From the NCBI GenBank assembly GCA_036227345.1, contig CP109468.1, forward strand, positions 2,294,001-2,358,000: DNA of 64,000 bases. The letters run 5' to 3'. Below, piece after piece: positions 36,086 through 45,189 of this stretch. This DNA comes from Streptomyces sp. NBC_01463 (GTDB taxonomy: Bacteria; Actinomycetota; Actinomycetes; Streptomycetales; Streptomycetaceae). Position numbers and translations under genes: made by a program. The notes under the pieces were generated by a model. That model saw only the letters and a program-made list of their open reading frames with translations, was not told the origin of the DNA and made no database searches. Positions within the stretch are counted from its first letter, which is position 1, and each line of letters opens with the position of its first letter.

Positions 36086-37963
36086 TCACACGGAGGGGTG
36101 GAGCGGGTTGGGTACCGTGCCGTGGACCGCCGCGTGCGGTCGCTCGGGCCGGTCGCGGTAGCCGTCCAGATGCAGGCGGTTGCGGTTCAGACAGAGGCGC
36201 TCGATGCGGGGCGTCAGCATGTCGAACATCTCGAACCTGTCCTTCAGCTCGGGGAAGCGGGCGTGGTGGCGCAGGATCTCCGCCCGGACGAGTGACCAGA
36301 ATTCGCTCTCCGGGACGCCCAGCTGTTCCTCGCAGAGCGGGGACAGGAATCGGAAGACTCCGGTGAAGAGGCCGGAGTGGATGAACTGGGTGAGGAAGGC
36401 CGGTTCCTCGGTGAGCAGGATGCGGCGCACGTCCGCCGGCATCGTGTCGTGCTCGGGCAGCGGCCGGGCGCTGACGTTCACGTCGTCGACGAAGTCCTTG
36501 ATCGCCAGCCGCACGGGGACGTCCCGCTCGTCGAAGACGACGATGGCGTTCTCGCCGTGCGGGGAGAAGACCGTGCCGTAGCGGTAGAGGAAGTGCAGCA
36601 GCGGCGGGAGCAGGGCGGCGAAGAGCCGGGTCAGCCAGACCGAGGGCGCCAGGCCGGAGCGCTCGACCAGCTCGGCGGTGAAGGCGCGGCCCTGCGGGTC
36701 GGTGTGCAGTAGGGAGGCGAGGGTGCGGGCCCGCTCACCGGGTGCGAGGCGCGGGAGGAGGGGTTCGCGCCAGATCGCGCCGAGGATCTCCTTGAACTGG
36801 TACGGCGTCTCGGGGAGGTGGTCGTAGAGCGGGTGCTCGACCGTGACCGAGGCGACCTCGCCGAGGAGGATGACACCGCAGGTGTCGCGCAGGAACGGAT
36901 CGTTGTCGCGCAGCCCCTGCACCCAGCCGGTGACGGCGGGCGCGGCGAGGGTGCGTTCGGTCGGCAGGCCGCGCCAGACCAGCGTGTTGAGGATGGACAG
37001 CGGGAGCTTGACCGTGTGCCGGTCGGGCCGGTCCAGGTTGGCGAAGGTGCGGATGGACTGCTGCGGGAGCCGCAGGTCCGGATCGGCGTGCAGGGGCACG
37101 ATGTCGCCGGCGGCGATGGCCGGGGCGAACAGCGGCACGATCCACTCGTCCCACTGCCAGGGGTGGACGGGCAGGAAGAGGTAGTCCTCCGGGTCGAGGG
37201 CGTTGCTGTGCAGGGCGGCGGCGAAGGACGCGCGGACCTCGGGGTCGAGCTCCTGGTCGTAGAGCCGGCCGGGGCGGGCGAGCGCGTTCACGCCCCGGTA
37301 GGCGGCGAGCCGGGAGGAGACGGCGATCCAGGGCAGTGTGACCGGGGTGCGGGCCTCGGGGGTGAAGCGGGCCGCGTCGGTGGCGGAGAAGCCGAGCCGT
37401 CCCTTGTTGGCGACGATCCAGGGGTGGCCCGTCTGGTGGCCCTCGAGTTCGGCGTAGTCGAGTTCGGCGAGTTCGGCGGCGGTGAGCGCGCCGTGGTCGA
37501 GGCGGGCGTCGGCGGTGAGGGTGGTGGTGAGCTCGCGGACGAGATGGCCGAGCGTGGCACCGTCCAGTTCGAGGAGGCGGCGGGCCCGGGCGAGGAAGAG
37601 CAGCGGGTCGCGGAAGGGGACGCTGCCGGCGACCTGGTCCCCGGCCGGTGCCCCGGTGGCCGCGTCGGCCTCCGTCGCCGCGCTGCTCGCCGCCCGGATC
37701 GAGTCGGGGGCGACCCGCCAGCTGCCGTACACCCCGCGCCGGGCGGTGAAGCTCAGGCTTCCGCCGTCGTCGAGGAGCAGGGTGTACGCGGTGCCCCCGG
37801 CGGCGCGCGGAACGGGCTGGATGACTTCCTCGTAGGCGAATTCGCCGAGCATCTTGGCGAGCAGCCGGGCGGCGGCTCGGTCCCAGACCGCCCGGTTCAG
37901 TTCCGGGGTGCTGAGCAGCGCGGGCGACGGGGCTGCATCACGGCTCGCGGGATATTTCGGCAC
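36086..37963 (-). CDS. NRPS-independent siderophore synthetase, IucA/IucC family (second)
   Basis: A 625-residue ATP-dependent amide synthetase that couples a carboxylic acid (citrate, succinyl or alpha-ketoglutarate type) to an amine or alcohol. Family blocks visible: GHQTGHPWIVANKGRLGFS, FLPVHPWQWDEW, SIRTFANLDRPDRHTVKLPLS split by the fingers region, and SPHGENAIVVFDERDVPVRLAIKDF. The C-terminal FhuF-like part ends with LCLNRNRLHLDGY. GTG 37963 with GAGGAG upstream. It is the last gene of the operon. Which of the IucA/IucC subtypes it is (A, B or C) cannot be settled by reading. Confidence 0.92.
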   Translation of the reverse strand: MPKYPASRDAAPSPALLSTPELNRAVWDRAAARLLAKMLGEFAYEEVIQPVPRAAGGTAYTLLLDDGGSLSFTARRGVYGSWRVAPDSIRAASSAATEADAATGAPAGDQVAGSVPFRDPLLFLARARRLLELDGATLGHLVRELTTTLTADARLDHGALTAAELAELDYAELEGHQTGHPWIVANKGRLGFSATDAARFTPEARTPVTLPWIAVSSRLAAYRGVNALARPGRLYDQELDPEVRASFAAALHSNALDPEDYLFLPVHPWQWDEWIVPLFAPAIAAGDIVPLHADPDLRLPQQSIRTFANLDRPDRHTVKLPLSILNTLVWRGLPTERTLAAPAVTGWVQGLRDNDPFLRDTCGVILLGEVASVTVEHPLYDHLPETPYQFKEILGAIWREPLLPRLAPGERARTLASLLHTDPQGRAFTAELVERSGLAPSVWLTRLFAALLPPLLHFLYRYGTVFSPHGENAIVVFDERDVPVRLAIKDFVDDVNVSARPLPEHDTMPADVRRILLTEEPAFLTQFIHSGLFTGVFRFLSPLCEEQLGVPESEFWSLVRAEILRHHARFPELKDRFEMFDMLTPRIERLCLNRNRLHLDGYRDRPERPHAAVHGTVPNPLHPSV

Positions 37964-38023
37964 GGAGACTCCTCGGGAGGGAACCGACGGGGTTCGAGCG
38001 GTGGGGAGGGGGCAGCGGATCGT

Positions 38024-38725
38024 TCACAGCCGGGCACGGTGGGCTCGGTCGCGGATCATCAGCGCGGCCCGCTTGTCCGGGAGTTCGACCTCCGCGGAGT
38101 AGCGGAATCCGGCGCTCAGGAACGCGGAGACGGACGGGGTGTTGCGGACATCGGGCTCGGCGACGACCCGGGTGCACCGGGGCCGGTTGTCGAGGACGAG
38201 GTCGGAGACCGCCCGGAGCAGGGTGGTGCCGGTCCCGCGGCCGCGGTGGTCCACGTCCCCGATGAGGAGGTGGATCCCGGTGTCGTGCGGGCGGACCGGG
38301 CAGTGCCGGGCGAGCGGGTCGAGGTCGGCCCGGTAGATCTCCCAGTAGCTCATCGGGACGCCCGAGAGCACGCCCAGGCAGGGCACGCTGCGTCCGTCGC
38401 CGTCGAGCTGGGGCATCAGGTGCCCGGCGGTGACGGTCTCGGCTCCGGCGAGCTCCCAGAAGGCCGCGACGGCGGGGTCGTTCATCCAGCGGCTGATCAG
38501 CGCGAGATCGCGCTCCAGCCGCACGGGGACGAGCTGGAACACGCCGGCCGGGGTCGTGACCGGCTTCCACTCCGCCGGCCGGTCGAGCAGCCCCGGGTCC
38601 TCGTGCCGCGGGCGCGGTGCGGGGGTCTCCTCCCCCAGCAGCGCCAGGAGTTCGGCGGTGAGCCGAAGGTCCAGCGTGTCGTCGGCGCCGGTTCCGGGGA
38701 CGGTGTGCGCATCGGCGGGAGGCAC
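38024..38725 (-). CDS. siderophore GNAT acyltransferase (Acetyltransf_8 type)
   Basis: A 233-residue acetyltransferase of the IucB/RhbD kind, which acylates an amine or hydroxylamine during siderophore assembly. Family marks are LISRWMNDPAVAAFWE, GVPMSYWEIYRAD and HLLIGDVDHRGRGTGTTLLR, the last being the acyl-CoA pyrophosphate loop. GTG 38725 is used (GAGGAG ten bases upstream). It sits between the two synthetase genes with gaps near 60 bases. In the well-studied systems such enzymes act after an N-hydroxylase, which is absent here, so its acceptor may be unusual or the hydroxylase is elsewhere. Confidence 0.85.
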   Translation of the reverse strand: MPPADAHTVPGTGADDTLDLRLTAELLALLGEETPAPRPRHEDPGLLDRPAEWKPVTTPAGVFQLVPVRLERDLALISRWMNDPAVAAFWELAGAETVTAGHLMPQLDGDGRSVPCLGVLSGVPMSYWEIYRADLDPLARHCPVRPHDTGIHLLIGDVDHRGRGTGTTLLRAVSDLVLDNRPRCTRVVAEPDVRNTPSVSAFLSAGFRYSAEVELPDKRAALMIRDRAHRARL

Positions 38726-38781
38726 GGTGACGCTCTCCTCTTCTGAGCGGTTCGGACGGATCCCGGCTCGGCGGAGTTCCT

Positions 38782-40692
38782 TCAGCCGTGGAGGGGGTTG
38801 GCGATGGTGACGTAGACGGACTGGGTGTCCACGGGTCCGACGAGTTCGTCGAGGCCGTGCAGACGCGTCAGCATGTTGGCCTTGCAGCGCAGCCGGGGTG
38901 TTTCCAGCAGGTGGGCGGGGAGCGGTGAGCCCAGTGCGGTGACCGATCCCAGGAACCGCCGGAAGGCGGCGAGGAGCACGTCCTCGTCGGCGAGCCGCTG
39001 GGCGCCGAACGCCCCGATCAGTCCGAACACGTTGTTGATGCCGAGGTAGTACGCGAAGCGTTCGTCGGTGACGGCGTCGGAGACGAAGGTGTCGCTGACG
39101 GATCCGATGCCGGGGAGCCTGCGGTCGAGGGCGGCGCGGTGGGACTCGCGGAAGTAGTAGCCCTGATTGTCCCGGTAGCGGCCGCCGGACGGCCAGCCCT
39201 CGGCGTCGAGCAGGACCAGGGTGTTCTGCTGGTGGGCTTCGAGGGCGACTCCGGCGTGGGCGTCGAGCCAGAGCACCGGCCGCACCACGCGGTCCAGGTA
39301 GCGCAGGAACCACTCGGTGGCGACGGCGGTCGTGGTCCGCCCGGTGGCGGCGGCGAGGCGGCGGACGATGTCGGCGAGGCGGGAGCGCATCTCCGGCCGG
39401 TCCGGCCAGGGGCGCGGGGCGGTGAGCCCGGCGATGCAGACGGCGTCGTCGTGCCGGCCGAACGGGTTGTGGCGCAGCATGACGTCGAGTCCGGGGACGG
39501 GTTCGCCCCCGGGGGTGTCGACCGCCAGCCACGCGGGGTCCCGGACGATGTCGAAGCCGGGGTGGGCGGAGTGCCACTGCCGGGCGAGTCCGGTGCGCAG
39601 CAGCCGGTGGACCTCCACGCCGCGGTGGAGTTCCTTGCGGAGGTTCTCCCGGCGGGAGTTGGTGATGCGTACGCCGAGGGAGAGCTTCAGCATGAGGTCG
39701 GCGCCGGGCTGCTGGACGGTGCGCACCGAGGAGGTGGGGTGCCAGCGCTCGCCGTACGGTCCGAGGTCGTGCAGGAGTCCGGAGTCGAACAGGGCCGCGA
39801 CCTCGGGCCGGTTGGCCAGGTCGCGGGCCTGCCAGGGGTGCAGCGGAATCGCCACGGTGTGCCCGGGGATCCGCAGGCCCTCGGCGTGGCGGGCGACGAG
39901 TTCGGCGGCACCGACCGGGCGGCCCTGTTCGGTCCACGCGGAGTCGGTGGCGAGGACGGACCGGTGGGCGGCCATCCAGTGCAGCGGGAAGGAGCCGTGC
40001 GCCTCGGGTGAGTAGAGGCGGGTCTCGGAGTCGGAGAGGCCTTCCCTGCTCTTGGGCGAGGGGTGCAGCGGATGACCGAGGAGGAGCGACTGTTCCGCGG
40101 TGAGGAAGAGGTCCGCCCCGGCGGGTGCGGTGGGCCGGTGCCGTTGTCCTTCGATGAATCCGGCGGTCCGCCGCACCGAGTCGGCCACCCGGCCCACCAT
40201 GTCGGCGCTCTCGTGGTGGCCGGCCTCCCGGCCGAGGAGGGCGGCGACGGTGACGGCGTCGACGGCGGGGGCGTTGTCGGGGGCCGTTTCCAGGAGCGGC
40301 GGGCCGAAGCGGTGCCAGCCCGTGGCGGACCAGTGGCGGACGGGGACGAGGAGGGCGGTGCCGCTCGCGGGGAGCGGGATGCGGAGGGTCTCCCCCTCCG
40401 GGCGGGACAGGTCGCCCTCGCGGACCCAGCAGCGCAGCAGGTTCTCGACGCCCGCCGTGTCGGCGGCGCACAGCGGGTCCGGGTGGTCCAGCGGGTCCGG
40501 ACCGTCCGGCGGATCGGCGGCCGGTGCCGGACCGGCGGCCGTGGGCCTGGGGGCGGGCCACTGACCGTGCGGCACCTCTTTCTGGCGCGGCACGGTCGAC
40601 GGTTCGACGGCGAGGTGGCCGAGTGTTGCGGCCTCTCCCCCGTGGTGGCTGGAGGGAGGGCCGTCGGCCTCGGGCGCGGGGGTGGGGTTCAC
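38782..40692 (-). CDS. NRPS-independent siderophore synthetase, IucA/IucC family (first)
   Basis: A 636-residue relative of the downstream synthetase. Blocks visible: GHPLHPSPKSREGLS, the central IPLHPWQARDLAN, TSSVRTVQQPGADLMLKLSL and ALEAHQQNTLVLLDAEGWP. The first 80 residues are Pro/Ala-rich and look disordered. GTG 40692. Sequence differs enough from the second synthetase to suggest two successive condensations on the same acid backbone. Lies 29 bases after the aminotransferase gene, so co-transcription is likely. Confidence 0.92.
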   Translation of the reverse strand: MNPTPAPEADGPPSSHHGGEAATLGHLAVEPSTVPRQKEVPHGQWPAPRPTAAGPAPAADPPDGPDPLDHPDPLCAADTAGVENLLRCWVREGDLSRPEGETLRIPLPASGTALLVPVRHWSATGWHRFGPPLLETAPDNAPAVDAVTVAALLGREAGHHESADMVGRVADSVRRTAGFIEGQRHRPTAPAGADLFLTAEQSLLLGHPLHPSPKSREGLSDSETRLYSPEAHGSFPLHWMAAHRSVLATDSAWTEQGRPVGAAELVARHAEGLRIPGHTVAIPLHPWQARDLANRPEVAALFDSGLLHDLGPYGERWHPTSSVRTVQQPGADLMLKLSLGVRITNSRRENLRKELHRGVEVHRLLRTGLARQWHSAHPGFDIVRDPAWLAVDTPGGEPVPGLDVMLRHNPFGRHDDAVCIAGLTAPRPWPDRPEMRSRLADIVRRLAAATGRTTTAVATEWFLRYLDRVVRPVLWLDAHAGVALEAHQQNTLVLLDAEGWPSGGRYRDNQGYYFRESHRAALDRRLPGIGSVSDTFVSDAVTDERFAYYLGINNVFGLIGAFGAQRLADEDVLLAAFRRFLGSVTALGSPLPAHLLETPRLRCKANMLTRLHGLDELVGPVDTQSVYVTIANPLHG

Positions 40693-40721
40693 GGCGGTCT
40701 TTCCTGTGATGGTTTCCGGGG

Positions 40722-42101
40722 TCAGCGGATCGACCCGGTCGCGGTCCGTCGGTGCGGGGAGCGCTCAGCGGCTGCCAGGGCGTCGGCGAGGCGGTCGACG
40801 ACCGCTGTCGCCTGTTCGTCGGTGAGCGTGAGGGGTGGGAGCAGGCGGACGACCGTGGAGTGGCGGCCGCCGAGTTCGACGATGAGGCCGCGGCGCAGGC
40901 ACTCCTGCTGGACGGCGGTGGCGAGGACCGGGTCGGGCGGCGCCTCGCCGCCCACGCCCACCGGGGCGGCTTCCGGGTCGACGAGTTCCACGCCGATCAT
41001 CAGGCCCCGGCCACGGACGTCACCGATGCTCGGGTGGCTTGCCGCCAGGCTCCGCAGCCGCGCGAGCATCCGGGCGCCGAGTACGCCGGCGCGCTCGGCG
41101 AGGCGGTTCTCCCGTACGTACGCGAGGGTGGCCGTGCCGGCCGCCATCGCGAGCTGGTTGCCGCGGAAGGTGCCGGCGTGGGCTCCCGGCTGCCAGGTGT
41201 CGAGCCCGGAGCGGTAGACGATGACGGCGAGCGGCAGGGATCCGCCGATGGCCTTGGACAGCACCATCACGTCGGGCACGACGCCGCTGTGCTCGACGGC
41301 CCAGAAGGCGCCGGTGCGGCCGACGCCGGTCTGGACCTCGTCGGCGATCAGGGGGATGGACCGGGCCGCCGTGATCTCCCGCATCCGGCGCATCCAGCCG
41401 TCGGGCGCGGGGTTGACGCCGCCTTCGCCCTGCACCGGTTCGAGGATCATTCCGGCGGGAGCGGGGGTGCCGCTCTTCGGGTCGTCCAGCACGCTCTCGG
41501 TCCAGCGCGCGGCGAGTTCCGCGCCGCGCTCGCCGCCCGTCCCGAACGGGCAGCGGTAGTCCTGCGGGAAGGGGAGCCGGGTCACCCGTACGTCCTCGGC
41601 GCCGCCGGACGCGGCGAGGGCGCCCGCCGTCATGCCGTGGTAGGCGCCGGTGAAGGCGAGCAGACCGCTGCGGCCGGTCGCGGCGCGCACCAGGGTGAAC
41701 GCCGCCTCGACCGCGTCGGTGCCCGCCGGACCGCAGAACTGGATCCGGGCGTCGTCGGCGAACTCCCGCGGCAGCGTGGCGAACAGCTCCGTGGTGAAGG
41801 CGTCCTTGACCGGTGTGGCCAGATCGAGCACGTGCAGGGGCGCACCCGAGTCGATGACCTTCTTGATCGCCTCCAGGACCACCGGGTGGTTGTGCCCGAG
41901 GGCCAGCGTCCCGGCTCCGGACAGACAGTCGAGATAGCGCCGCCCGTCGGCTCCCTCGATGGTCAGCCCGCGCGCCCGTACCGGCACGATCGGCAGCGAG
42001 CGCGCGTAGGTACGGGCCGCCGACTCACGCAGTGACTGGCGGCGCAGGATGCCTTCGTGTGCCGCCAGGGGTGGTGCCGGAGCTGGTTCGGTCACGGCCA
42101 C
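40722..42101 (-). CDS. diaminobutyrate--2-oxoglutarate aminotransferase (class III)
   Basis: A 459-residue PLP aminotransferase. Lys283 (VLSKAIGGSLP) is the likely PLP lysine and Asp254 lies in ADEVQTGVGRTG; GAYHGMTAGALAASG and EPVQGEGGVN are also class III motifs. It is similar to the enzymes that make 2,4-diaminobutyrate for siderophores such as rhizobactin (RhbA) and for ectoine (EctB). No ectoine gene adjoins, so the siderophore role is preferred. GTG 42101 with GGAGG upstream; the longer frame is discarded. It is the first gene of the operon. No clear iron-box (TTAGGTTAGGCTAACCTAA-like) is visible upstream. Confidence 0.88.
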   Translation of the reverse strand: MAVTEPAPAPPLAAHEGILRRQSLRESAARTYARSLPIVPVRARGLTIEGADGRRYLDCLSGAGTLALGHNHPVVLEAIKKVIDSGAPLHVLDLATPVKDAFTTELFATLPREFADDARIQFCGPAGTDAVEAAFTLVRAATGRSGLLAFTGAYHGMTAGALAASGGAEDVRVTRLPFPQDYRCPFGTGGERGAELAARWTESVLDDPKSGTPAPAGMILEPVQGEGGVNPAPDGWMRRMREITAARSIPLIADEVQTGVGRTGAFWAVEHSGVVPDVMVLSKAIGGSLPLAVIVYRSGLDTWQPGAHAGTFRGNQLAMAAGTATLAYVRENRLAERAGVLGARMLARLRSLAASHPSIGDVRGRGLMIGVELVDPEAAPVGVGGEAPPDPVLATAVQQECLRRGLIVELGGRHSTVVRLLPPLTLTDEQATAVVDRLADALAAAERSPHRRTATGSIR

Positions 42102-42460
42102 GGCTGTTGATCCTCCCGCTGTAACAGTTGCGTTGCACGTCAGCACGATTCCGCAAGGACGGACTGCGGGGGTGAACGCTGTCTCCGTGTCCCCCGTACG
42201 TACCAACGACGCCGGGCGCCGAGGATCACGGGTAAATCCGAAGATCCTCGCGGAACGGAACCATGGCCCTGCCGCACACCGTCCACAGCGGCACCGGCAT
42301 AGTGGGGGACCGCGCCGGGGCTCCGGGACAACCTCCCGGCCGCCACGGCATACGCGCGAGGCACCGGACCGCCGTCCGCGGTGCCGGTCCGTGTGCCGTG
42401 CCGAAGTCCAGAAGTGCAGTACGGAAGCGTTGAGTTACGAAGTCCCAGGGGGATCACCAG
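42102..42460. other. intergenic region upstream of siderophore operon and peptidase
   Basis: About 360 bases carrying divergent promoters. An inverted repeat CGAGGATC...GATCCTCG (42220-42227, 42243-42250, 15-base spacer) could be an operator for either side. No iron box recognised. Confidence 0.5.
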
Positions 42461-43768: not shown

Positions 43769-44019
43769 CGATCCGCACGGACGTTGATCCGGGCGGGCCG
43801 CGCCCGTCGCGGGCCCGCCCCGCCGTCCGTCCGCCGGCCGGTGGCAACGGTCACCGCCCGGCCCGTCATAGGGTGGTCCCGCACCGAAGCCGACAGCCGG
43901 TCACCCCGGCGTACGGCATGACACGCTCATGCCATTTTGAGCACATTCGGCTTCGCCGATCCAGGTTCGACGTTCCAGGTACAACGATCTGTTCTGAAGA
44001 TTCAGGGGGAATCTTTTCC

Positions 44020-45189
44020 ATGCGATCCATACGTCCGCTGCTCGCCGCGACCGGTCTCGTCGCCGCACTCGCGCTGACGGCCACGGCCTGCGGTCCGAGC
44101 GAGGACCAGGCGGCCGACAAGCCCGCCACCACCGAATCCACCGGCTCCGACTCCAGCGGCGGCATGCCCTCCGGTCTGGCCGACACCCTGAAGAAGCACG
44201 GGGTCGACCCGGAGAAGTGGAAGGGCGGTGAATGGAAGAACTGGGACAAGGACAAGTGGCTGCGTGAGGCCAAGGACTTCGTCAACCCGGTCATCGAGGG
44301 GCTCTGGAAGCCCGACCGGATGAAGTCCGCGAAGGACCCGGCCAAGACCATGTCCACCGGGGACCTCTCCGGCGACCAGGGCGTCAGCGACCCGGAGCCG
44401 AGGCCGGTCACGGCCGAGCGCGAGAAGACGCCGTACCACAACTACGCGGCCCCGGTCGGGAAGGTCTTCTTCGACTCCCCCGAGGGCTCCATGGTCTGCT
44501 CGGGCACCGTCGTGAAGGACCCGAAGAACCCGGGCAGGTCCAACCTGGTGTGGACGGCCGGCCACTGCGTCCACGCCGGTGCGAAGGGAGGCTGGTACCG
44601 CAACATCGTCTTCGTGCCCGCCTACAACGACAAGGGCAAGTCCGCTGCGGCGCTGAAGAACGCGCAGCAGCAGGAGATCACCCCGTACGGCGCCTACTGG
44701 GCCGACTGGGCCTCCACCTCCGGCGAGTGGCTCGCCGACGGCGGCCCCACCGGCGGCGAGGGCGCCCCGTACGACTACGCGATCCTGCACGTGAAGCCGG
44801 AGCACGGCACCAAGTCCCTGGAGGAGACCGTGGGCAACGCCCTGCCGGTCGACTTCGACGCCCCCGAGGTCGCGCAGATCAGCGCGATGGGCGCGTGGGG
44901 CTACCCGGCCGCTCCGCCGTACGACGGTCTGATCATGCACAAGTGCGTCGACCGTCCCGGCCGGCTGTCGATCAGCCCCGCCACCCCCACGATGTACCGC
45001 ATCGGCTGCACGATGACCGGCGGTTCGTCCGGTGGCGGCTGGTTCAGGAACGTCGGCGACGGCAAGCTGGCGCTGGTCTCCAACACCTCCATCGGCCCGG
45101 TGACGGCCGGCTGGCTCGCCGGACCCCACCTGGGCGAGGGCGCCCAGCAGATCTTCACGATGATGAGCGACAAGTTCGGCGCCAAGTAG
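44020..45189 (+). CDS. trypsin-like serine peptidase lipoprotein (paralogue 2)
   Basis: A 389-residue paralogue of the preceding peptidase. It has a short lipoprotein signal (LALTATACG) and the same N-terminal module (WKGGEWKNWDKDKWLREAKD). The triad is kept: His in WTAGHC, Asp in PYDYAIL, Ser in TGGSSGGGW. The frame extends upstream but ATG 44020 with AGGGGGA gives a proper signal peptide. Its position, length and sequence show a tandem duplication that has since diverged. A perfect palindrome follows the stop. Confidence 0.87.
   Translation: MRSIRPLLAATGLVAALALTATACGPSEDQAADKPATTESTGSDSSGGMPSGLADTLKKHGVDPEKWKGGEWKNWDKDKWLREAKDFVNPVIEGLWKPDRMKSAKDPAKTMSTGDLSGDQGVSDPEPRPVTAEREKTPYHNYAAPVGKVFFDSPEGSMVCSGTVVKDPKNPGRSNLVWTAGHCVHAGAKGGWYRNIVFVPAYNDKGKSAAALKNAQQQEITPYGAYWADWASTSGEWLADGGPTGGEGAPYDYAILHVKPEHGTKSLEETVGNALPVDFDAPEVAQISAMGAWGYPAAPPYDGLIMHKCVDRPGRLSISPATPTMYRIGCTMTGGSSGGGWFRNVGDGKLALVSNTSIGPVTAGWLAGPHLGEGAQQIFTMMSDKFGAK

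What the first reader, a model, noticed from the sequence alone, without database searches (positions are those of the whole stretch)
36086..42101. NIS siderophore operon lacking hydroxylase, decarboxylase and transporter
Four minus-strand genes with gaps of 29, 56 and 60 bases: class III (diaminobutyrate-type) aminotransferase, IucA/IucC synthetase, Acetyltransf_8-type GNAT, second IucA/IucC synthetase. The layout recalls rhizobactin 1021 (RhbA, RhbC, RhbD, RhbF) but lacks the decarboxylase RhbB and the N-hydroxylase RhbE. Without hydroxylation the product should be a carboxylate-type chelator built on diaminobutyrate, or the hydroxylase must act from elsewhere. No iron box or uptake gene adjoins. 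The compound may be undescribed.
Basis: partly seen in the sequence, partly recalled or inferred. Interest (0 to 1): 0.72.

Follow-up and report, generated by a model that had tools for sequence, protein, structure and literature searches.

The report
Siderophore operon with distant missing genes
A Streptomyces gene set for an iron-binding compound seemed to lack two key enzymes, but genes for both lie together about 4.4 million bases away, so the pathway is probably split between two places and its unknown product can now be predicted and tested.

Summary
In detail: four minus-strand genes, gaps 29, 56 and 60 bases, no iron box, no uptake gene. The cluster itself is published: it is csb (csbABCD; PMC9600172), product unknown, CsbC preferring succinyl-CoA in vitro. 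The "missing" enzymes are probably in trans. The same genome holds an overlapping pair, an RhbB-like decarboxylase and a diamine-type N-hydroxylase, at C1:6,724,012-6,726,872; it has no other IucA/IucC synthetase. Of 159 Streptomyces genomes, 149 have csbB and 148 at least a piece of this hydroxylase. In other actinomycetes homologues of all six genes form one rhbABCDEF-order operon (7 of 16 loci fetched outside the genus; hydroxylase in cis in 16 of 16), and the distant decarboxylase nests among decarboxylases of complete operons. Best reading: a schizokinen/rhizobactin-type citrate-hydroxamate pathway split over two loci, both without the iron box that many one-piece relatives carry; the acyl group may be succinyl. 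A non-hydroxylated carboxylate chelator is the weaker reading. Not shown: product, enzyme substrates, or any coupling of the loci. Against: no hydroxamate was seen by LC-MS in PMC9600172; nine genomes with the hydroxylase show only weak decarboxylase hits; co-loss is not significant after phylogenetic correction.

The parts
40722..42101 (-). csbA: class-III aminotransferase, L-2,4-diaminobutyrate:2-oxoglutarate transaminase type (RhbA-like)
   Evidence: TIGR00709 480 bits, over its 401.6 cut-off; PRK06938 644 bits, just under its 671 cut-off; 54% to RhbA; 115 of 117 near-invariant columns kept, K283 in SKAIGG among them
38782..40692 (-). csbB: type A NIS synthetase (IucA/RhbC-like), expected to use citrate
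   Evidence: PF04183 + PF06276; best solved relative IucA 5jm7 E 5e-50, then AcsD; 39% to RhbC; 63 of 63 near-invariant columns kept
38024..38725 (-). csbC: Acetyltransf_8 GNAT (RhbD/IucB/MbtK-like) N-acyltransferase; the domain starts near residue 70
   Evidence: PF13523 E 9.7e-47; best solved relative MbtK; 36% to RhbD; CsbC of PMC9600172 succinylates amines in vitro
36086..37963 (-). csbD: type C NIS synthetase (RhbF/IucC/AlcC/DesD group)
   Evidence: PF04183 + PF06276; AlcC 320, DesD 312, IucC 297 bits among solved structures; 40% to RhbF (433 bits) against 34-36% to three DesD rows (285-312 bits)
42189..42211 (-). Conserved 23-base block about 110 bases upstream of csbA; promoter or operator candidate, factor unknown
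   Evidence: within 3 mismatches upstream of csbA in 20 of 21 csb loci and upstream of the decarboxylase in 0 of 21 pair loci; one match in the whole own genome with up to 3 mismatches

Best explanation
The window operon is csbABCD, one half of a schizokinen/rhizobactin-1021-type NIS pathway. The other half, a decarboxylase and an N-hydroxylase whose genes overlap by 4 bases, lies at G000:C1:6,724,012-6,726,872, about 4.4 Mb away. Inferred steps: CsbA makes L-2,4-diaminobutyrate; the distant decarboxylase gives 1,3-diaminopropane; the distant flavin hydroxylase gives N-hydroxy-1,3-diaminopropane; CsbC acylates the hydroxylamine (probably succinyl, possibly acetyl); CsbB joins one unit to citrate; CsbD joins a second. 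Predicted product: a citrate bis-hydroxamate, schizokinen (C16H28N4O9) if acetyl, or a bis-succinyl analogue C20H32N4O13 (monoisotopic about 536.20) if succinyl; succinyl ends might be closed further by CsbD, as DesD/AlcC-type enzymes use such ends (recalled). Shown by sequence: gene content, the split, its conservation, family membership, no recognisable iron box. Inferred: substrates, order, product, and that the two loci work together.
For: Own genome: two IucA/IucC genes, both here, so no DesD; of four decarboxylase (PF00282) and six hydroxylase (PF13434) hits one of each are neighbours. Hydroxylase: best solved relatives are a monooxygenase (6xbb; DesB, recalled), a desferrioxamine-pathway monooxygenase and a putrescine hydroxylase. 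Decarboxylase: best solved relative is named a diaminobutyrate transaminase/decarboxylase; 244 bits to RhbB, 213-222 to three DesA rows. Genus: csbB in 149 of 159; hydroxylase E 1e-170 or better in 143, pieces in 5 more. In own plus 20 further genomes (mostly the nearest in the hydroxylase listing) 21 of 21 csb loci are ABCD without dec or hyd, 21 of 21 pair loci dec-hyd without csb genes. Outside the genus, 16 of 30 csbB-bearing genomes were fetched: hydroxylase in cis 16 of 16, decarboxylase 14 of 16, full csbA-dec-csbB-csbC-hyd-csbD order 7 of 16, the order annotated in S. meliloti. The distant decarboxylase lies in a 100/100 clade with those of NIS operons L059, L060, L061, L142. Of five csbB+ genomes without the pair, three have lost csbD, two of them csbA too.
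Against: No product is known; PMC9600172 searched LC-MS data for hydroxamate or succinyl fragments and found none. No shared control is visible: the csbA block is absent before the pair and neither locus has an iron box. Decarboxylase: best NCBIfam RhbB at 294 bits against a 900 cut-off; hydroxylase: best NCBIfam 'putative histamine N-monooxygenase' at 401 against 700, so neither substrate is fixed. Decarboxylase E 1e-80 or better in 138 of 159 genomes, but in at least three of these (G035, G043, G114) the best listed row is a one-piece-operon copy; nine genomes with a strong hydroxylase (G014, G028, G032, G044, G051, G097, G131, G139, G152) have only weaker decarboxylase hits (not followed up; in G032 and G097 the hydroxylase lies at a contig start). 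Hydroxylase identity does not separate RhbE (41%) from DesB (40%). csb by pair: Fisher p 4e-6 uncorrected, not significant on a tree of 31 genomes (p 0.25-1). Exceptions: G008 (740 contigs) has csb, no pair seen; G032 has lost csb and keeps the hydroxylase. csbD and hydroxylase trees do not give the same sister group.
Confidence: 0.72

Rival explanations
1. csbABCD alone makes a carboxylate-type chelator from diaminobutyrate and citrate, N-acylated (succinylated) but not hydroxylated; the distant pair serves something else.
For: The four genes are a conserved block (21 of 21 loci); CsbC succinylates plain amines such as putrescine and ornithine (PMC9600172 section 9), so hydroxylation is not needed for acylation; no hydroxamate fragments were seen by LC-MS there; the two loci share no promoter block; nine genomes have the hydroxylase with only weak decarboxylase hits.
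Against: Relatives of the operon carry the hydroxylase in cis in 16 of 16 and the decarboxylase in 14 of 16 loci fetched outside the genus and both in 13 of 13 chosen loci inside it; the pair has no csb-type gene beside it (0 of 21 loci; other gene kinds were not searched there) and its hydroxylase is in most of the genus.
Confidence: 0.16
2. csb borrows hydroxylated cadaverine from the desferrioxamine enzymes DesA and DesB.
For: Six fetched loci of the genus, chosen for it, carry a decarboxylase-hydroxylase-GNAT-synthetase run of the des kind.
Against: The window's own genome has no third IucA/IucC gene; its one decarboxylase-hydroxylase neighbour pair lies outside the clades of those des loci; CsbA would have no role.
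Confidence: 0.04
3. csb is mainly an N-succinylation or detoxification unit and the synthetases are vestigial.
For: CsbC inactivates several antibiotics in vitro (PMC9600172); in two genomes only csbB and csbC remain at the site.
Against: Near-invariant columns of the synthetases are kept (63 of 63 and 63 of 66) and all four genes persist in 21 of 21 loci; the two reduced genomes carry a one-piece operon that could supply the lost genes.
Confidence: 0.05

Closest known systems
csb cluster of Streptomyces sp. YIM 121038 (PMC9600172)
   Same: Same four gene kinds in the same order, followed by dinG, lexA and nrdR (nrdR here by eye).
   Different: Protein lengths differ (e.g. csbB 818 aa there, 636 here). 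Its upstream 443-aa orf1 was not compared with the window's 409-aa neighbour. The paper notes that an iucD-like gene is absent; the passages and sections I read name no hydroxylase elsewhere.
rhizobactin 1021-type operon rhbABCDEF (S. meliloti M162, L245)
   Same: Each csb and pair protein has an Rhb counterpart (36-54% identity); 7 of 16 outside-genus loci keep the full rhb order.
   Different: Decarboxylase and hydroxylase sit as an overlapping pair about 4.4 Mb away; no iron box found; no adjoining transporter; acyl donor probably succinyl-CoA (inferred from PMC9600172).
Haloferax volcanii HVO_B0041-B0046, proposed schizokinen pathway (PMC7407949, passages read)
   Same: The same six functions, from aspartate to a citrate bis-hydroxamate, as proposed there.
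   Different: One hexacistronic operon there, two loci here.
desferrioxamine desABCD
   Same: Decarboxylase, hydroxylase, GNAT and a type C synthetase of the same superfamilies.
   Different: One synthetase and no transaminase; csb also has a type A synthetase, and the own genome has no third IucA/IucC gene.

Membership tests
csb cluster (PMC9600172) | csbA-csbB-csbC-csbD in this order, followed by dinG, lexA, nrdR | tested here: met
   against the Table 1 text; nrdR by eye; orf1 not compared
rhizobactin 1021 / schizokinen-type NIS pathway | diaminobutyrate transaminase | tested here: met
   TIGR00709 over cut-off, 54% to RhbA
rhizobactin 1021 / schizokinen-type NIS pathway | type A plus type C synthetase | tested here: met
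rhizobactin 1021 / schizokinen-type NIS pathway | GNAT acyltransferase of the RhbD/IucB kind | tested here: met
   PF13523, 36% to RhbD
rhizobactin 1021 / schizokinen-type NIS pathway | diaminobutyrate decarboxylase in the genome | tested here: inconclusive
   RhbB-like enzyme present (40%) but 294 bits against a 900-bit equivalog cut-off; substrate not testable here
rhizobactin 1021 / schizokinen-type NIS pathway | diamine N-hydroxylase in the genome | tested here: inconclusive
   A hydroxylase nearest diamine-type enzymes is present, 41% to RhbE and 40% to DesB, best NCBIfam below cut-off; substrate inferred
rhizobactin 1021 / schizokinen-type NIS pathway | all six genes in one operon | tested here: not met
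   split over two loci in the own genome and in 20 of 20 further genomes fetched
rhizobactin 1021 / schizokinen-type NIS pathway | iron-regulated promoter | tested here: not met
   no box matching 14 or more of 19 positions upstream of csbA or of the pair in 21 and 21 loci (consensus recalled); other kinds of iron control are not excluded
rhizobactin 1021 / schizokinen-type NIS pathway | citrate bis-hydroxamate product | not testable with these tools
   needs metabolomics
desferrioxamine | DesD as the single NIS synthetase with DesA, DesB, DesC beside it | tested here: not met

The most novel reading that the evidence does not exclude
Nearly the whole genus Streptomyces carries a second, desferrioxamine-independent metallophore pathway split over two chromosomal loci, freed from the usual iron-box control and re-tooled from acetyl to succinyl hydroxamates; its product is an undescribed succinyl analogue of schizokinen, or a macrocycle closed through the succinyl ends.
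Probability: 0.33. Interest if true: 0.72.

Novelty: new variant of a known kind. Interest (0 to 1): 0.55.

Why it matters
The csb cluster looks like an incomplete siderophore cluster, and prediction from its neighbourhood alone would give the wrong chemistry. Naming candidates for the two missing genes gives a testable structure and mass and offers a case of a pathway taken apart yet kept across a genus, apparently with changed control. It would also give CsbC, known so far as an antibiotic-succinylating enzyme, a likely natural substrate.

Tried and rejected
Set lower: a carboxylate-only product (candidate pair in trans, cis relatives). Rejected for this strain: DesA/DesB as donors (no DesD, pair outside the des clades). 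Not supported: control by a DmdR iron box (one site of 16/19 lies about 2.9 kb upstream of the pair in L032 only) or a Zur-like palindrome (best 8 of 14; consensus recalled). Led nowhere: co-loss statistics (Fisher p 4e-6 uncorrected, with G028 still scored csb-minus; not significant on a tree). Correction: G028 holds the csbC end and csbD; G050, G130 and G139 end in contig breaks at the site; so G014, G027, G032, G092, G132 and G142 are the checked losses (G092 keeps a 55% csbA-like piece). Guessed locus names SCO2016/SCO2017 for the pair in S. coelicolor gave one unrelated paper and are not used. Paper searches (open-licence PMC only) showed no report of the pair, judged from titles and abstract starts; I opened only PMC7324645, PMC6414726, PMC3224560 and PMC7407949 (passages) and PMC9600172 (abstract, passages, sections 9 and 11). 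No structure prediction was run. Confidence was lowered from 0.74 to 0.72, and the first rival raised from 0.14 to 0.16, after counting the nine genomes with weak decarboxylase hits.
Full report
WHAT IS THERE. The window holds four same-strand genes at 36086-42101 with gaps of 29, 56 and 60 bases: a diaminobutyrate-type transaminase (csbA), a type A IucA/IucC synthetase (csbB), an Acetyltransf_8 GNAT (csbC) and a type C synthetase (csbD). No uptake gene or iron box adjoins. Gene order and the downstream flank match the csb cluster of Streptomyces sp. YIM 121038 in PMC9600172 (abstract, passages, sections 9 and 11 read). That paper notes the absent iucD-like gene, found no product, failed to disrupt csbC, and shows CsbC to prefer succinyl-CoA, with weak acetyl transfer to some substrates. 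S. coelicolor SCO5799-5801, called a putative siderophore locus in PMC7324645 (passage), is probably the same cluster (recalled, not tested).

THE MISSING GENES. The whole genome (9.07 Mb) has two IucA/IucC genes, both in this operon. Of four PF00282 decarboxylase hits and six PF13434 hydroxylase hits, one of each are neighbours: decarboxylase 479 aa and hydroxylase 474 aa, overlapping by 4 bases, at C1:6,724,012-6,726,872. By eye they lie between an aminopeptidase-N-like and a 5'-nucleotidase-like gene. The other two strong hydroxylases lie elsewhere (L014, L015). Among solved structures the hydroxylase is closest to desferrioxamine-type and putrescine hydroxylases, the decarboxylase to a diaminobutyrate enzyme. 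In NCBIfam both score well below the curated cut-offs of their best families (RhbB 294 of 900; histamine N-monooxygenase 401 of 700).

CONSERVATION. In 159 Streptomyces-genus genomes csbB is present in 149 (12 piecewise hits resolved). The hydroxylase is present at E 1e-170 or better in 143 and as pieces in five more (G010, G012, G041, G081, G099). The decarboxylase is at E 1e-80 or better in 138, some of these being one-piece-operon copies; nine genomes with a strong hydroxylase have only weaker decarboxylase hits. In own plus 20 further genomes both loci were fetched: 21 of 21 csb loci hold csbA-D and neither dec nor hyd, 21 of 21 pair loci hold dec-hyd and no csb gene. They lie far apart, for example 6.80 and 2.14 Mb in G019, 5.75 and 1.51 Mb in G005. 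Named contigs found with the hydroxylase: the 80 best of 152 were kept, all 80 Streptomyces.

ONE-PIECE RELATIVES. Inside the genus 13 fetched loci hold homologues of decarboxylase, csbB, hydroxylase and csbD together; seven were chosen because decarboxylase and csbB-like hits were adjacent, six by a csbB-paralogue hit. Outside the genus 30 of the 394 genomes searched carry a csbB homologue at E 1e-60 (38 more are in-genus, own included). I fetched 16 of the 30: hydroxylase in cis in 16, decarboxylase in 14, csbC in 8, the full csbA-dec-csbB-csbC-hyd-csbD order in 7. That is rhbABCDEF, as annotated in S. meliloti. A Rhodococcus plasmid also has decarboxylase, synthetase, GNAT and hydroxylase in a row. 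Identities to Rhb proteins are 36-54%. The trans decarboxylase sits in a 100/100 clade with decarboxylases of NIS operons L059, L060, L061, L142, away from DesA. The trans hydroxylase forms a supported clade with a second, iron-boxed pair, away from DesB. In a quick tree, csbD of the split loci is one clade with L123, an outside-genus one-piece operon, as sister (98; long-branch warning). The hydroxylase tree does not show that sister, so descent of both halves from one operon is plausible, not shown.

CONTROL. A DmdR-type box (16 of 19 or better; consensus recalled) lies in 8 of 9 in-genus loci L059-L067, 2 of 4 in L139-L142 and 9 of 16 outside loci, and 6 of 6 des loci. Upstream of csbA it is absent (0 of 21, best 13 of 19), as upstream of the pair (0 of 21, best 12). 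A 23-base block about 110 bases before csbA is conserved in 20 of 21 loci, absent before the pair (0 of 21), and unique in the own genome.

LOSSES. Fisher's test on csb by pair gives p 4e-6, but four of the six genomes scored as lacking both (G027, G092, G132, G142) are one clade, and the corrected test is not significant. Site checks show no csb between dinG and the flanking peptidase gene in G027, G032, G132 and G142; loss of csb and the peptidase genes in G014; a csbA-like remnant in G092; csbC end and csbD present in G028; contig breaks in G050, G130, G139. Of five csbB+ genomes without the pair, G043, G079 (78% complete) and G121 have lost csbD (G043 and G121 also csbA), while G114 and G008 run into contig ends within csbD. 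G043, G114 and G121 carry a one-piece operon. This fits dependence, but the events are few.

MECHANISM AND PRODUCT. The inferred chain is aspartate semialdehyde, diaminobutyrate, 1,3-diaminopropane, N-hydroxy-diaminopropane, N-acyl hydroxamate, then mono- and bis-amide of citrate, as proposed for H. volcanii schizokinen (PMC7407949 passages). Near-invariant columns kept: 115/117, 63/63, 13/15, 63/66, 56/58, 70/74 for csbA, csbB, csbC, csbD, dec, hyd. CsbC has Arg112 in 21 of 21 split-locus proteins where RhbD, six DesC rows and the eight outside rows have His; three in-genus one-piece GNATs (L065, L139, L140) have neither. A link to succinyl preference is speculation.

VERDICT. The cluster is known, its product is not; the new point is the conserved distant pair that probably completes it. 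A new variant of a known kind.

Noticed in passing
L068, L069, L150 (G005, G066, G115); L070, L149: A second decarboxylase-hydroxylase pair (56-58% and 64-66% identity) with an iron box upstream and no csb-type synthetase beside it in L068, L069 and L150; in L070 the hydroxylase is followed by another kind of IucA/IucC synthetase and preceded by a FhuF-C protein; L149 shows the hydroxylase and a box only.
   Followed up: partly
L060 (tested), L059, L063, L064 (by eye): One-piece Streptomyces operons carry extra genes: in L060 an Orn/DAP-type decarboxylase, a glutamine-synthetase-like enzyme and a weak GNAT. Ten of 13 in-genus one-piece loci show no csbC homologue.
   Followed up: partly
L158, L160: In G121 and G043 the csb site is reduced to csbB-csbC, while a one-piece operon without a csbC hit lies elsewhere: the two loci look complementary.
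   Followed up: partly
window:42189-42211: Unique conserved block upstream of csbA; no known regulator assigned.
   Followed up: partly
window:42461-43690 and 43873-45189: Two tandem, similar secreted proteins (the second a weak trypsin-like match) divergent from csbA; at least one is kept beside the site in 5 of 6 checked csb-loss genomes.
   Followed up: no
L163 and L164 (G012): Two parts of the pair hydroxylase lie about 4.6 Mb apart in one contig (rearrangement or misassembly).
   Followed up: no
L014 (own genome 8.12-8.14 Mb): Hydroxylase, formyltransferase-like and ABC-type genes with several iron boxes, resembling a coelichelin-type locus (by eye).
   Followed up: no
H1, NZ_CP081497.1:1570173-1571948: A csbB homologue (67.5%) on a 2.8-Mb plasmid record of Streptomyces sp. 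BHT-5-2.
   Followed up: no
G014, G028, G032, G044, G051, G097, G131, G139, G152: Strong pair hydroxylase but only weak decarboxylase hits; loss, relocation or assembly gap not resolved.
   Followed up: no
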